A stretch of 64,000 bases of DNA, from the NCBI RefSeq assembly GCF_001029105.3, contig NZ_CP011807.3:1178001-1242000 (forward strand), given 5' to 3'. Positions within the stretch are counted from its first letter, which is position 1. Each line of letters begins with the position of its first letter. This stretch comes from Pandoraea faecigallinarum. GTDB lineage: Bacteria; Pseudomonadota; Gammaproteobacteria; Burkholderiales; Burkholderiaceae. Both the position numbers and the translations under genes were made by a program. This document shows positions 32,307 through 47,519 of the stretch, in pieces. The notes under the pieces are model-generated. The model did not search any database, was not told the DNA's origin, and saw only the letters and a program-made list of their open reading frames with translations.

Positions 32307-33176
32307 ATGCTCAGGTCGATTCAGTTGAAGGACGCAAACGTAGCCGAAGCGTATGCCGACGCACGTCAGTCGCAGCCGGCGGCAACGCCGTTGCCGTTCG
32401 CTATCGAATATCGCGGCGTCACGCGTCGGTTCAAAAATCGCCAGGGCAAGGGCGAAATGACGGCCGTCACGGACGTGTCCATCGGCATCAAGGCCGGTGA
32501 GTTCGTCTCGCTGATCGGCCCGAGCGGTTGCGGCAAGAGCACGCTGCTCAATATGGGGGCTGGTCTCTACGCGCCGAGCGAAGGGCAGGTGACGCTTGCG
32601 GGCAAGCCGGTGCGCGGCCCCTCGCAACAGGTCGCGTTCATGCTGCAAAAGGATTTGCTCATGCCGTGGCGCTCGATTCAGAAGAACGTCGAACTGGGCA
32701 TGCAGATTCGCGGCCGCAGCAAGGCGGAGCGTGCGGAAGTCGCCAGGGCGCTGCTGGCGCGCTGTCACCTCAAAGGTTTCGAGAATCACTATCCGCACCA
32801 GCTCTCGGGCGGCATGCGCCAGCGCGCCGCGCTCGCGCGCACGCTCGCTGTCGAGCCGGACGTGCTGCTCATGGACGAGCCGTTCTCCGCGCTCGATGCG
32901 CAGACCAAGATGGTGCTTCAGCAGGACCTCGCGCAAATGCTCGCGGCAGAAGGCAAGACCGCGCTGATGATTACGCACGACCTCGCGGAAGCGATTGCGC
33001 TCTCGGACCGTGTGTTCGTGATGAGCGAGCGTCCGGGCACGATCATCGAAGAGATCGTCGTCGATTTGCCGCACCGCGATAACCCCATCGAGCGACGCAA
33101 GCAGGCGGGCATGAACGAGTACGTCGCCCATCTGATGGAACTGCTCAAGGTCGGTCGCGACGACCACCTCGGCTGA
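32307..33176 (+). CDS. ABC transporter ATP-binding protein (SsuB/TauB type)
   Basis: A 289-residue ATPase. Walker A is GPSGCGKST, the Q-loop region LQKDLLMPWR, the signature LSGGMRQR, Walker B LLMDEPFSALD and the H-loop ITHDLAEA. It belongs to the nitrate/sulfonate/taurine/aromatic-acid importer group. The longer frame starting at 32205 begins inside the operator and is rejected; the ATG at 32307 follows GGTGG. It is the first gene of the operon, with its permease next. The substrate-binding protein is 9 kb downstream. Confidence 0.92.
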   Translation: MLRSIQLKDANVAEAYADARQSQPAATPLPFAIEYRGVTRRFKNRQGKGEMTAVTDVSIGIKAGEFVSLIGPSGCGKSTLLNMGAGLYAPSEGQVTLAGKPVRGPSQQVAFMLQKDLLMPWRSIQKNVELGMQIRGRSKAERAEVARALLARCHLKGFENHYPHQLSGGMRQRAALARTLAVEPDVLLMDEPFSALDAQTKMVLQQDLAQMLAAEGKTALMITHDLAEAIALSDRVFVMSERPGTIIEEIVVDLPHRDNPIERRKQAGMNEYVAHLMELLKVGRDDHLG

Positions 33177-33237
33177 TCGCCACGCGCGCGCTGAAACTGG
33201 TGCGCCGAGTTACGCACAAGACACTGGAATCCTTGCT

Positions 33238-34020
33238 ATGAAAACCCTTTCGAAAACGCAACTGACCGTCGGCAGCTTCGTGCTGCTGCTGATCTTCGCG
33301 GCCGTGTGGCAATGGGGCCCGACGGCATTCGGTGTGCCCGAATTCGTGCTGCCGAAACTGTCGTCGACCGTGGTCGAAGGCGCGCGCATGTTCGAAGTCG
33401 AGAACCTGTGGCTGCACATTGGCGTGACGGCGCTCGAAGTGATCGCGGGCTTCGTGATCGGCTCGGCGCTCGGCGTGATGATCGGCGTGATCCTCGGCTT
33501 GTCGCCGTCGACCGAAGCCATGCTTTCGCCGTACATCCTCGCCTTGCAGATCGCCCCGAAGGTGGCCTTCGCGCCGCTGTTCGTGATGTGGATGGGCTAC
33601 ACGATCTACCCGAAGATCCTCGTCGCGGTGCTGATCGTGTTCTTCCCCGTGATGATCAACGTGCTCGGCGCGGTGCGCTCCGTCGATCCGGACATGGTCA
33701 ATTTAGTACGCGCGCTGTGCGGCCGCCGTTGGCAGATCTTCCGCTTCGTCGAGTTCCCGTCGGCCATGCAGGCGCTGTTCGCCGGCCTGCGCATCGCCTC
33801 GACGCTGGCCGTGATCGGTGTGACGGTCGGTGAGCTCGTGGGCGGGGACCGTGGGCTGGGCTATCTGCTCGTGTACGGCGAAGGGCAGGGCAATACCGCG
33901 ATGGTGTTCGTCGCCATCGCCGGGCTGACCGCCATTGGTATTGCCGCCTACGCCGCCGTGGTCTGGCTTGAGCGCCGTGCACTGCACTACGTGCCGCGCG
34001 CCTCCATGAACATCGCCTGA
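33238..34020 (+). CDS. ABC transporter permease (SsuC/TauC type)
   Basis: A 260-residue inner-membrane protein with about six hydrophobic segments. The EAA loop region is present as ALCGRRWQIFRFVEFPSAMQ. The family is that of nitrate, sulfonate and aliphatic/aromatic acid importers served by NMT1/THI5-like binding proteins. It lies 61 bp after the ATPase. Confidence 0.9.
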   Translation: MKTLSKTQLTVGSFVLLLIFAAVWQWGPTAFGVPEFVLPKLSSTVVEGARMFEVENLWLHIGVTALEVIAGFVIGSALGVMIGVILGLSPSTEAMLSPYILALQIAPKVAFAPLFVMWMGYTIYPKILVAVLIVFFPVMINVLGAVRSVDPDMVNLVRALCGRRWQIFRFVEFPSAMQALFAGLRIASTLAVIGVTVGELVGGDRGLGYLLVYGEGQGNTAMVFVAIAGLTAIGIAAYAAVVWLERRALHYVPRASMNIA

Positions 34021-34046
34021 GCGCGCGGCGTCGCAAGGATCCGATC

Positions 34047-45496: not shown

Positions 45497-45548
45497 GCGG
45501 CGCGGGCATCAGGAAAAATCAGCGACATCAGCAACAGAGAGCGGCGTT

Positions 45549-46514
45549 ATGAGCAAGTCAAACCTGTCGGCCATGGTGCGCACGCTTCGCTTCGAGGCGG
45601 CGGGCATCATGAGCATCGAACTCGTGCCTGTGGCAGGCAGCAGCACGGCATTCCCGGACTTCTTACCGGGCGCGCACATCGATCTGCACTTGCCGAGCGG
45701 GCTGGTGCGCAGCTATTCGCTGGTCAACGCGCCCGGCGAGCCGAACCGTTATGTGCTCGGCATTCTGGCCGATCCGAAGAGCCGGGGTGGTTCGCGTTTC
45801 ATCCACGACAATTTCCGTGTCGGCATGACGCTCGACATCTCGGCACCGCGCAATCACTTCGCGCTGGACGAAACCGCTGCACACACGGTGCTGGTCGCGG
45901 GCGGCATCGGCATCACGCCGATTCTGTGTATGTATCGCCGTCTGCGCTCGCTGGGCCGTAGCGTCAAGCTGATGTATTGCGCGCGCACCGCGCAGCAGGC
46001 CGCGTTCGTCGATGAACTGAACGTGCTTGGCGGCGACCTCACCTATCACTTCGACGACCAGCACGACGGAAAACCGGCGTCGCTCGCCGCGTTTCTGGCG
46101 GATCAGCCGGCAGGCACGCATGCGTACTGCTGCGGTCCGGGCGTGATGCTCGACGCGTTCGAAGCCGCCTGCGCCGGCGCCGGAATCGACAATGTCCACA
46201 TCGAGCGGTTCGCCGCAGCGCCCGACGCACCGCCGCCCGCCACCTCGGAAGGCTATGTCGTGACGCTCGCGAAGTCCGGCAAGGAAGTCACGGTGCCGGC
46301 CGGTGCGACGTTGCTCGCCACGCTGATCGCCGCGGGCATCGACGCCGAACATAGCTGCATGGAGGGCGTGTGCGGCGCCTGCGAGACGCGTGTGCTCGAG
46401 GGCTGTCCCGATCATCGCGACTCGGTGCTCAGTGCGTCCGAGCGCGCGTCGAACAAGGTCATGATGATCTGTGTGTCGGGTTGCAAGGGCGACCGTCTGA
46501 CGCTGGATCTGTAA
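45549..46514 (+). CDS. Phthalate/vanillate-type oxygenase reductase
   Basis: A 321-residue FMN reductase with a C-terminal plant-type ferredoxin. The N-terminal flavin site is RSYSLVNAP and the NAD site is VAGGIGITPILCM. The [2Fe-2S] cysteines are in CMEGVCGACETRV plus a final cysteine near the end. It transfers electrons from NADH to a Rieske oxygenase. It is placed to serve oxygenase (1), and possibly also the second Rieske protein, which has no reductase of its own. Confidence 0.93.
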   Translation: MSKSNLSAMVRTLRFEAAGIMSIELVPVAGSSTAFPDFLPGAHIDLHLPSGLVRSYSLVNAPGEPNRYVLGILADPKSRGGSRFIHDNFRVGMTLDISAPRNHFALDETAAHTVLVAGGIGITPILCMYRRLRSLGRSVKLMYCARTAQQAAFVDELNVLGGDLTYHFDDQHDGKPASLAAFLADQPAGTHAYCCGPGVMLDAFEAACAGAGIDNVHIERFAAAPDAPPPATSEGYVVTLAKSGKEVTVPAGATLLATLIAAGIDAEHSCMEGVCGACETRVLEGCPDHRDSVLSASERASNKVMMICVSGCKGDRLTLDL

Positions 46515-46547
46515 ACGCCCGACTCCGAACTTATTCCCGAGACTGTC

Positions 46548-47519
46548 ATGACGATTCTTGGCATCGAACAAATCACCTACGGGGTCACCGACCTCGACAC
46601 CTGCCGCCGGTTTCTCGCCGACTGGGGCCTGACAGAGGTCACGGCCGACGCCAACGGCGCGCGCTTCGAGACGCTCAACGGCTGCCGCGTGCTGGCCGTG
46701 CGCCACGACGATCCGTCGCTGCCGCCGGCCATGGAGGAAGGGCCGACGCTGCGCGAAGTCACCTGGGGCGTGGCGAGTGCCGGGGAAGTGGCCGCCATCG
46801 CGGACCGCCTCGCCGGTCAACCCGGCTATTACTGTCAGGACGGCGCGACGGGCTGCATCGATCCGAACGGTCTGGCGGTGCGCGTCGAGGTCACGGCCAA
46901 GCGCACACTGGACGTGCAAGGCGCGCCGACCAATCCGTGGGGGCTGCCCGCGCAGCGCGTCAATACGCCAAGCCCCGTGTATGAACGCGCGCAGCCGATC
47001 GAAGTCGGTCACGTCGTGTTCTTCACCAACGCACTCGCGGCCACGCAGAAGTTCTACGAGGACAAACTCGGATTCGAGTTGTCGGATCGCTACCCGGATC
47101 GCGGCGCGTTCATGCGCTGCGCCCCGCACGGCGGGCACCACGACCTGTTCCTGCTGGCGCTGCCCAATGGCAAGCGTGGCCTGAACCACGTGGCGTTTAC
47201 CGTGCGCGACATTCACGAAGTCTTCGGCGGCGGCATGCACATCGACCGCTGCGGCTGGGAAACACAATTGGGGCCGGGGCGTCACCCGATCTCGTCGGCG
47301 TATTTCTGGTACTTCAAGAACCCGTGCGGCGCGCTCATCGAGTATTACGCGGACGAGGACATCCTCACCCCGGAATGGCAGCCGCGCGATTTCGAGCCGG
47401 GGCCGACAGTGTTCGCGGAATGGGCGGTGGACGGTGGACTGGACGGCAACACGCGCCGTCAGAAGAAGGGAGGCGAGGCGCCGACCGGAAAGTTCATGAC
47501 AGACACGGCCAAGCGGTAA
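46548..47519 (+). CDS. Extradiol-type (VOC) dioxygenase
   Basis: A 323-residue two-domain vicinal-oxygen-chelate protein. The three metal ligands in the C-terminal domain are visible: His in EVGHVVFF, His in LNHVAFTV and Glu in ALIEYYAD. The family includes catechol and 2,3-dihydroxybiphenyl extradiol dioxygenases. The C-terminal 40 residues are basic and extra. It is the last gene of the operon, before a strong terminator. Confidence 0.87.
   Translation: MTILGIEQITYGVTDLDTCRRFLADWGLTEVTADANGARFETLNGCRVLAVRHDDPSLPPAMEEGPTLREVTWGVASAGEVAAIADRLAGQPGYYCQDGATGCIDPNGLAVRVEVTAKRTLDVQGAPTNPWGLPAQRVNTPSPVYERAQPIEVGHVVFFTNALAATQKFYEDKLGFELSDRYPDRGAFMRCAPHGGHHDLFLLALPNGKRGLNHVAFTVRDIHEVFGGGMHIDRCGWETQLGPGRHPISSAYFWYFKNPCGALIEYYADEDILTPEWQPRDFEPGPTVFAEWAVDGGLDGNTRRQKKGGEAPTGKFMTDTAKR

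What the first reader, a model, noticed from the sequence alone, without database searches (positions are those of the whole stretch)
32307..47519. Unrecognised 15-kb catabolic operon for a probable N-containing aromatic acid
Sixteen co-directional, mostly overlapping genes combine uptake, a Rieske oxygenase with reductase, an extradiol-type dioxygenase, a cupin, a hydrolase, two SDRs, a TPP enzyme, aspartate dehydrogenase, aldehyde dehydrogenase and RidA, under an embedded IclR regulator. I know no described pathway with this set. Nitrogen-handling enzymes plus ring hydroxylation and ring cleavage point to an amino- or N-heteroaromatic acid.
Basis: partly seen in the sequence, partly recalled or inferred. 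Interest (0 to 1): 0.82.

Follow-up and report, generated by a model that had tools for sequence, protein, structure and literature searches.

The report
Operon probably degrading kynurenate-type acid
A run of 17 genes in a Pandoraea chromosome, found again with much the same content in many other bacteria, looks like the machinery for eating a nitrogen-containing two-ring acid, most likely kynurenate made from tryptophan, though no experiment yet shows the substrate.

Summary
A porin gene precedes it and a divergent flavin monooxygenase gene lies beside it; operator-like palindromes precede porin and operon. Its core (Rieske oxygenase, two SDRs, extradiol VOC dioxygenase, TPP enzyme, aspartate dehydrogenase, aldehyde dehydrogenase, cupin, hydrolase, IclR) recurs in Burkholderia s.l., Klebsiella, Acinetobacter, Delftia and alphaproteobacteria, so it is one pathway, not a chance assembly.

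My best reading is catabolism of kynurenate (4-hydroxyquinoline-2-carboxylate): the enzyme types follow the classical scheme as I recall it, and pyridine-ring opening would leave iminosuccinate for aspartate dehydrogenase and RidA.

Support: accessory genes are a molybdenum hydroxylase (two lineages) and a flavoprotein nearest to 6-hydroxynicotinate monooxygenase; the dioxygenase co-occurs with tryptophan dioxygenase; Klebsiella's operon aspartate dehydrogenase matches one with published activity.

Against: no biochemical evidence; almost no physical linkage to kynurenine genes; kynurenate accumulates in a P. aeruginosa kynU mutant; a Tn-seq study predicts PA3505 essential in host-like media.

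The parts
29256..30431 (-).
   Evidence: outside Pandoraea 57-70% identical copies beside the operon in L125, L127, L136, L139-L142; three more (L163, L166, L169) by 64-74% identity to L127's copy; not found in the 70 Burkholderia-type loci (E <= 1e-40)
30754..30771 (.). operator-like palindrome (1 mismatch to CGTTTCA-N4-TGAAACG) before the porin gene
30823..32001 (+). outer-membrane porin (PF13609); true start probably downstream of 30823
   Evidence: porins mostly 53-59% identical, divergent to the operon, in most Burkholderia-type loci
32195..32212 (.). perfect operator-like palindrome 19 bp after a TATAAT box (32170-32175), before the operon
32307..33176 (+). ABC transporter ATPase (SsuB/TauB type)
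33238..34020 (+). ABC permease (SsuC/TauC type)
34047..34847 (+). SDR1; proposed cis-dihydrodiol dehydrogenase (inferred)
   Evidence: next to Rieske in L119, L121, L123, L124
34898..35455 (+). small cupin, among the best conserved proteins; role unknown, ring-opening step suspected
35568..36485 (+). alpha/beta hydrolase (PcaD/C-C hydrolase-like); proposed ring-opening or C-C hydrolysis (inferred)
36487..37413 (+). IclR-family regulator (PcaR/PobR-like, below the subfamily cut-off)
37410..38225 (+). SDR2, PRK07062 family; proposed reductase of the ring-cleavage product (inferred)
   Evidence: 435.8 bits, cut-off 266; 3lf1, Q9HYA2, E 1.2e-107
38218..39870 (+). TPP enzyme, PRK07064 family; proposed alpha-oxo-acid decarboxylase (inferred)
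   Evidence: (930.8 bits, cut-off 495)
39863..40681 (+). aspartate dehydrogenase; proposed handler of iminosuccinate
   Evidence: NF009827, 365.8 bits, cut-off 226
40695..42191 (+). aldehyde dehydrogenase (BADH/HpaE-like, below the equivalog cut-offs)
42273..43292 (+). ABC solute-binding protein, NMT1/SsuA-like
43306..43650 (+). orf114, no Pfam or NCBIfam match; pairs with RidA beside the operon in L164 and L167
43650..43868 (+).
43938..44984 (+). Rieske oxygenase, VanA type; proposed kynurenate 7,8-dioxygenase (inferred)
   Evidence: orthologue in 27 of 32 genomes of the window's genus
45053..45496 (+). RidA-family imine/enamine deaminase
   Evidence: 2ig8 = PA3499, E 2.9e-49; fused to the Rieske oxygenase in P0188
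45549..46514 (+). FNR-type reductase with Fer2 domain, electron donor of the oxygenase (inferred)
46548..47519 (+). two-domain VOC extradiol dioxygenase; proposed 7,8-dihydroxykynurenate 8,8a-dioxygenase (inferred)

Best explanation
An IclR-controlled operon for aerobic catabolism of kynurenate (4-hydroxyquinoline-2-carboxylate) or a very close analogue. Porin and ABC system import the acid. The Rieske oxygenase with its reductase dioxygenates the benzo ring at 7,8; SDR1 rearomatises the diol to 7,8-dihydroxykynurenate; the VOC enzyme cleaves at 8,8a, leaving a pyridine with an unsaturated alpha-oxo-acid side chain; SDR2 reduces it; the TPP enzyme decarboxylates it to an aldehyde; ALDH oxidises that to 5-(2-carboxyethyl)-4,6-dihydroxypicolinate. 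Hydrolase and/or cupin (with the NicC-like flavoprotein where present) open the pyridine ring. By simple chemistry the N-C2(COOH)-C3-C4 fragment leaves as aminofumarate/iminosuccinate, which AspDH reduces to aspartate or RidA hydrolyses to oxaloacetate and ammonia. Shown: gene content, clustering, motifs, family membership, co-occurrence, and published AspDH activity of what is probably the Klebsiella member. Inferred: every substrate assignment, the step order and the control by IclR. The pathway chemistry is recalled, not read here.
For: Core set kept as a block. The VOC keeps the extradiol residues H155, H198, H214, E265 and the Rieske its cluster and mononuclear-iron motifs. Duplication clue: Caballeronia NK8 pNK84 carries a full copy plus a second Rieske-TPP-VOC trio followed by a molybdenum hydroxylase and an SRPBCC protein; the same hydroxylase (63-65%) adjoins the Rieske gene in G900 and G936, one genus. 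That class hydroxylates N-heteroaromatics (quinaldate to kynurenate is a known type, recalled). The FAD enzyme is nearest to 6-hydroxynicotinate 3-monooxygenase, E 1.6e-78. Published K. pneumoniae AspDH (254 aa, GxGxxA, active) matches the operon protein of L124 (254 aa, GYGAMA). A Delftia acidovorans VOC (P0066) is 99.7% identical to the one in G605's operon; Delftia is the old Pseudomonas acidovorans of kynurenate work (recalled). VOC co-occurs with tryptophan 2,3-dioxygenase: 8 of 9 versus 68 of 170 genomes in G616's family, p 0.005; 8 of 17 versus 49 of 283 in the order, p 0.006; control PF00775 in G616's family 7 of 9 versus 124 of 170, p 0.55. In G616 the TDO gene lies 11.3 kb from the VOC gene, kynureninase beside it.
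Against: No enzyme of the operon has been shown to act on a kynurenate intermediate, and no paper read here describes the pathway step by step. TDO or kynureninase genes were found near the operon only in G616, with unrelated genes between; with 13 TDO-bearing genomes looked at, one such proximity could be chance (0.6% per genome). In 7 of 20 operon or VOC genomes no TDO was found, so those would need outside kynurenate. No kynurenine aminotransferase was noticed beside it (no targeted search was made). P. aeruginosa strain CHA secretes kynurenate, to about 100 uM when kynU is deleted (PMC4938989, passages); whether CHA has the operon was not checked. A Tn-seq study lists PA3505, which I recall as the AspDH of the PAO1 cluster, as predicted essential in 3 of 4 host-like conditions (PMC9732424, passages), odd for a purely catabolic gene. 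The Mo-hydroxylase's best solved match is 4-hydroxybenzoyl-CoA reductase, quinoline 2-oxidoreductase only fourth, and the FAD enzyme is absent from Burkholderia-type loci. Nothing in the operon handles the expected glutarate. The co-occurrence is not corrected for genome size or ancestry.
Confidence: 0.47

Rival explanations
1. The same pathway logic, but the natural substrate is another N-heteroaromatic acid (for example quinaldate, xanthurenate, another quinoline- or pyridine-carboxylate) and kynurenate is at most one entry compound.
For: Accessory Mo-hydroxylase and NicC-like flavoprotein; a duplicated Rieske-TPP-VOC trio in NK8 suggests retuning for a second substrate; uptake genes beside the operon differ between lineages (ABC, MFS, TRAP or TctC).
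Against: Does not by itself explain the co-occurrence with tryptophan dioxygenase. A bona fide AspDH needs a fragment N-C(COOH)-C-C(=O), which 4-hydroxyquinoline-2-carboxylates supply (inference).
Confidence: 0.27
2. The operon degrades an aromatic acid without ring nitrogen, or an amino- or nitro-benzoate, by a meta-cleavage route; AspDH and RidA only deal with by-products or nitrogen balance.
For: HpaE is among the best-scoring models for ALDH and HpaD the best for VOC; the hydrolase resembles PcaD and C-C hydrolases; the regulator is PcaR-like.
Against: All below the curated cut-offs (HpaE 477.6 of 638.35; HpaD 62 of 321.4; PcaD 86.3 of 255.85; PcaR subfamily 173.7 of 284.75). No hydratase, aldolase or 4-oxalocrotonate decarboxylase model appeared among the best matches of the 16 proteins scanned; AspDH and TPP are in all 80 loci.
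Confidence: 0.17
3. The window block is a merger of two unrelated units (ATPase to SBP, and orf114 to VOC) with separate substrates.
For: In Burkholderia s.l. the order differs and the Pandoraea-type ABC, SBP, orf114, RidA and reductase genes were not found (0 of 70 non-Pandoraea loci).
Against: Rieske, VOC, SDRs, TPP, AspDH and ALDH stay together in beta-, gamma- and alphaproteobacteria in several orders; orf114 and RidA also join the operon in L164 and L167.
Confidence: 0.05

Closest known systems
Kynurenate ('quinoline') branch of bacterial tryptophan catabolism, known from 1950s-60s biochemistry (steps recalled; a 1961 title of the series seen in the reference list of PMC11354673, passages)
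   Same: Sequence of reaction types: aromatic dioxygenation, diol dehydrogenase, extradiol cleavage, reduction, decarboxylation of an alpha-oxo acid, aldehyde oxidation, release of nitrogen as an amino or oxo acid.
   Different: I know no gene assigned to it; here genes are proposed. AspDH and RidA as the nitrogen-release step is my inference.
P. aeruginosa PAO1 cluster around PA3499-PA3514 (extent and gene order recalled; PA3499 named, Q9HYA2)
   Same: RidA and SDR2 of the window have PA3499 and Q9HYA2 as nearest solved relatives; AspDH PA3505 was studied as an enzyme (recalled; a title is in the reference list of PMC5554190).
   Different: Not read here as a locus; in PMC9732424 (passages) PA3505 is listed under nicotinate and nicotinamide metabolism and called a hypothetical pyrimidine biosynthesis gene.
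Homoprotocatechuate (Hpa) meta-cleavage pathway
   Same: VOC and ALDH have HpaD and HpaE among their best named models.
   Different: Scores far below cut-off; TPP, AspDH and Rieske are not part of Hpa (recalled).
Carbazole 1,9a-dioxygenase, 2-oxoquinoline 8-monooxygenase and dicamba demethylase-like Rieske oxygenases
   Same: Sequence matches to all three in PDB.
   Different: Matches confined to the N-terminal half or two thirds of the protein; no orthology.

Membership tests
Type I extradiol dioxygenase (VOC) | Two-domain VOC protein with 2-His-1-Glu iron site and acid-base His (residues recalled from homoprotocatechuate dioxygenase) | tested here: met
   PF00903 in the C-terminal half; motifs with H155, H198, H214, E265
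Rieske non-heme iron oxygenase, VanA type | CxH...CxxH cluster motif and NxMDxxHxxxxH mononuclear-iron motif (motifs recalled) | tested here: met
   CPH-x16-CGYH at 67 and NVMDPMHGTYLH at 174; PF00355 and PF19112; the third ligand Asp was not located
PRK07064 TPP enzymes | Score above the curated cut-off | tested here: met
   930.8 bits against 495
L-aspartate dehydrogenase | Family score above cut-off | tested here: met
   NF009827 365.8 against 226; NF009826 469.6, just below its 479
L-aspartate dehydrogenase | Catalytic activity on aspartate/oxaloacetate | not testable with these tools
   Published for a K. pneumoniae enzyme whose length and motif match the operon member there (PMC5554190, discussion section and passages); accession not seen
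Kynurenate catabolic pathway | An enzyme class present for each recalled upper-pathway step (Rieske plus reductase, SDR, extradiol, reductase, TPP decarboxylase, ALDH) | tested here: met
   classes only, not activities
Kynurenate catabolic pathway | Activity on kynurenate and its intermediates | not testable with these tools
   needs growth and enzyme assays
Kynurenate catabolic pathway | Genomic link to kynurenine formation | tested here: inconclusive
   Co-occurrence with TDO nominally significant but uncorrected; physical proximity only in G616
Homoprotocatechuate (Hpa) pathway | HpaD and HpaE equivalog scores above cut-off | tested here: not met
   62 of 321.4 and 477.6 of 638.35
Aminomuconate (2-aminophenol/2-nitrobenzoate) meta pathway | RidA-type deaminase together with decarboxylase, hydratase and aldolase of the lower pathway (recalled) | tested here: not met
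   RidA present, but no such lower-pathway family among the listed matches of the 16 proteins scanned

The most novel reading that the evidence does not exclude
The operon supplies the genes for the kynurenate pathway (kynurenate 7,8-dioxygenase, its diol dehydrogenase, 7,8-dihydroxykynurenate 8,8a-dioxygenase, the decarboxylase and aldehyde dehydrogenase, and an iminosuccinate-releasing pyridine-ring opening by cupin/hydrolase with AspDH and RidA). A widely spread set of soil bacteria and opportunists would then be able to remove a host and plant signalling metabolite.
Probability: 0.42. Interest if true: 0.78.

Novelty: new variant of a known kind. Interest (0 to 1): 0.57.

Why it matters
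If right, it gives sequences to enzymes described more than 60 years ago (I believe still without genes; not verified beyond the searches named), explains why 'aspartate dehydrogenase' genes sit in aromatic-catabolic operons rather than with NAD synthesis, and predicts which bacteria can consume kynurenate, an immune- and neuro-active tryptophan product. Even if the substrate is a sister compound, a conserved operon found in alpha-, beta- and gammaproteobacteria moves from 'unknown' to a testable N-heteroaromatic pathway with a defined gene list and operator-like site.

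Tried and rejected
Rejected: FADmono as a substitute for the Rieske oxygenase (a xanthurenate entry). It looked so in L140-L142, but a Rieske orthologue (69-70% identical to L121's) lies roughly 13-17 kb from the TPP gene in all three genomes, so the flavoprotein is an extra part. Rejected: a TDO operon link in G616; the genes between are DNA-repair and oxo-tetronate genes among others. Rejected: Hpa, aminomuconate and beta-ketoadipate membership (scores and missing genes). Not every relative carries the operon: Variovorax SRS16 (TPP 44% identical) has none of the partner genes beside it, and distant VOCs (G222, 40%; plasmids, 34-38%) sit in other gene sets. 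A Burkholderia ambifaria plasmid hit was too sparsely annotated to use. The operator-like site at up to 2 mismatches was not found in Burkholderia-type loci nor in L025, the tenth Pandoraea locus; of 11 matches in 8 of 30 other loci, 7 lie at promoter positions or divergent junctions and 4 elsewhere. My first count (12 in 9 of 31) held one locus twice (L110 lies inside L134); corrected. Structure prediction of cupin and orf114 was not possible. Two reviews opened for the pathway (PMC3053476 and PMC5897657, passages) do not describe kynurenate breakdown in the passages seen.

Full report
WHAT IS THERE. The window lies in a Pandoraea chromosome (named relatives up to 97% identical at the TPP enzyme; G000 contig C1). 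From 32307 to 47519 there are 17 genes on the plus strand: ABC ATPase, permease, SDR1, cupin, alpha/beta hydrolase, IclR, SDR2, TPP enzyme, aspartate dehydrogenase, aldehyde dehydrogenase, solute-binding protein, orf114, a 72-aa protein, Rieske oxygenase, RidA, reductase, VOC dioxygenase. Its homologues, called 'recombinase-like helix-turn-helix' proteins in NCBI records, lie before the Rieske gene, or before the transporter genes that precede it, in the annotated loci and in 78 of 80 loci. Gaps between genes are -8 to 112 bp. Upstream lie a porin gene (30823-32001) and, divergent from it, a FAD monooxygenase gene (29256-30431).

REGULATION. Two copies of the palindrome CGTTTCA-N4-TGAAACG stand at 30754 (1 mismatch, before the porin) and 32195 (perfect, before the ATPase, 19 bp after TATAAT at 32170-32175). 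Two matches at up to 2 mismatches compare with 0.21 expected in shuffles of the window; 2 of 100 shuffles reached two. All of L001-L009, nine of ten Pandoraea loci, carry both sites; L025 has none. In 30 chosen non-Pandoraea loci there are 11 matches in 8 loci, against a mean of 1.5 in 20 Markov resamplings of the same set plus one duplicate. Seven of the 11 precede the operon's first genes or lie at IclR junctions (L123, L124 twice, L126, L133, L134, L168); four lie elsewhere. Burkholderia-type loci lack it. An IclR-type operator is the likely meaning; this is inference.

CONSERVATION. The genome scan with the TPP enzyme kept the best 80 of 585 relatives. In all 80, matches to SDR1, cupin, hydrolase, IclR, SDR2, AspDH, ALDH and VOC were found with TPP; Rieske in 78, the two misses being short pieces. 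Ten are Pandoraea and hold all 16 genes queried (RidA not scored in L008). The other 70 (Paraburkholderia, Caballeronia, Burkholderia, Trinickia) lack recognisable copies of the Pandoraea ABC/SBP, orf114, RidA and reductase; the annotated Caballeronia NK8 locus has instead a ferredoxin, a FAD-dependent oxidoreductase, an MFS transporter and a divergent porin. In the window's genus the Rieske orthologue is in 27 of 32 genomes. Across 398 genomes of the phylum PRK07064 scored over its cut-off in 15, the window's included. Loci in Klebsiella, Acinetobacter, Paracoccus, Nitratireductor, Pseudosulfitobacter, Novosphingobium, Vibrio nigripulchritudo and unnamed alphaproteobacteria carry the core set in other orders; the stretch or annotation shown does not include every part in each, for example no Rieske gene is listed for Vibrio. 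A Variovorax plasmid relative of TPP (44%) stands without the partners. All 17 window genes have a relative beside parts of the operon outside Pandoraea, orf114 and RidA as a pair in L164 and L167. The order of genes varies, the set stays: one pathway.

WHAT THE PARTS SAY. The VOC has the extradiol residues and matches homoprotocatechuate and catechol dioxygenases weakly. The Rieske protein has both iron motifs and matches dicamba, carbazole and oxoquinoline oxygenases. The TPP enzyme belongs to PRK07064, without a named substrate. AspDH is a true family member. A published K. pneumoniae enzyme of 254 aa with a GxGxxA motif and measured activity (PMC5554190, discussion section and passages) matches the operon's AspDH in Klebsiella L124, 254 aa with GYGAMA; I did not see its accession. 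The best solved relatives of SDR2 and RidA are Q9HYA2 (3lf1; a P. aeruginosa protein as I recall) and PA3499 (2ig8). A protein named as P. aeruginosa fuses Rieske and RidA (P0188).

CLUES TO THE SUBSTRATE. (a) Caballeronia NK8 plasmid pNK84 holds a full operon and, about 8 kb after that copy's MFS gene, a second ferredoxin-HTH-Rieske-TPP-VOC set (97-99% identical to the first in Rieske, TPP and VOC) followed by a three-subunit molybdenum hydroxylase and an SRPBCC protein. The same hydroxylase (63-65%) directly adjoins the Rieske gene in G900 and G936, with CoxG near it in G936; these two share one unnamed genus, so this makes two lineages among the loci held. Such enzymes hydroxylate N-heteroaromatics, among other substrates; the large subunit's first four kinds of solved match are 4-hydroxybenzoyl-CoA reductase, 6-hydroxypseudooxynicotine dehydrogenase, CO dehydrogenase and quinoline 2-oxidoreductase. 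(b) The FAD monooxygenase is closest to 6-hydroxynicotinate 3-monooxygenase and recurs beside the operon in ten loci outside Pandoraea, but in none of the 70 Burkholderia-type loci. Cutting the order sample at VOC E 1e-90 gives 8 of 11, p 0.0001, a cut chosen after seeing the data. (d) In G616 the TDO-kynureninase pair is about 11 kb away, a 0.6% chance for one genome among 13 with TDO, and unrelated genes lie between. (e) A Delftia acidovorans VOC is 99.7% identical to G605's, so that genome is probably Delftia; Delftia's former name Pseudomonas acidovorans belongs to kynurenate work (recalled).

PROPOSED MECHANISM. The recalled kynurenate route needs these enzyme types. Its recalled intermediate, 5-(2-carboxyethyl)-4,6-dihydroxypicolinate, on lactam hydrolysis and retro-Claisen cleavage gives glutarate and aminofumarate/iminosuccinate. 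That would explain a genuine aspartate dehydrogenase and, in Pandoraea, an imine deaminase. The ring-opening enzymes are the weakest part: cupin and hydrolase are candidates only. The duplicated trio Rieske-TPP-VOC in NK8 suggests that these three see the substrate's ring, which agrees with the order proposed.

LIMITS. No activity was tested, no model of any protein could be made, and the pathway steps come from memory. Counter-evidence: 7 of 20 operon or VOC genomes gave no TDO match; no kynurenine aminotransferase was noticed nearby, though none was searched for; kynurenate accumulates in a P. aeruginosa kynU mutant (PMC4938989, passages); and PA3505 is predicted essential in 3 of 4 host-like conditions (PMC9732424, passages). 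I put 0.47 on kynurenate or a very close analogue (lowered by 0.01 in checking, for the Tn-seq result first left out), and about 0.75 on an N-heteroaromatic acid of this kind in general.

Noticed in passing
window 49375-51862, +: A second Rieske oxygenase (LigXa_C type) followed by another NMT1-type solute-binding protein, behind a divergent AraC regulator (48311-49354): a small separate aromatic-oxidation and uptake pair.
   Followed up: no
window 43306-43650 (orf114): A 114-aa protein without Pfam or NCBIfam match, very conserved, found as a pair with RidA in distant alphaproteobacteria (L164, L167); function unexplained.
   Followed up: partly
P0188 (named Pseudomonas aeruginosa): Rieske oxygenase fused to a RidA domain in one 432-aa protein, suggesting a direct functional link between the two.
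   Followed up: no
L161 (Caballeronia NK8 pNK84) 4268-17578 and 25785-35016: Full operon and a near-identical partial second copy with a molybdenum hydroxylase, a recent duplication with apparent change of entry substrate.
   Followed up: partly
L125 17244-18328 (Vibrio nigripulchritudo plasmid): The FAD monooxygenase homologue appears as two tblastn segments with no listed gene; possibly a frameshift.
   Followed up: no
window 34898-35455 (cupin): HIH and EE metal-site residues kept, but Tyr stands where the second cupin motif usually has His (usual motif recalled); invariant in 17 aligned sequences.
   Followed up: no
window 57482-59802, +: AraC regulator followed by an ArsO-type flavin monooxygenase above the NCBIfam cut-off (529.6 of 425 bits).
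   Followed up: no
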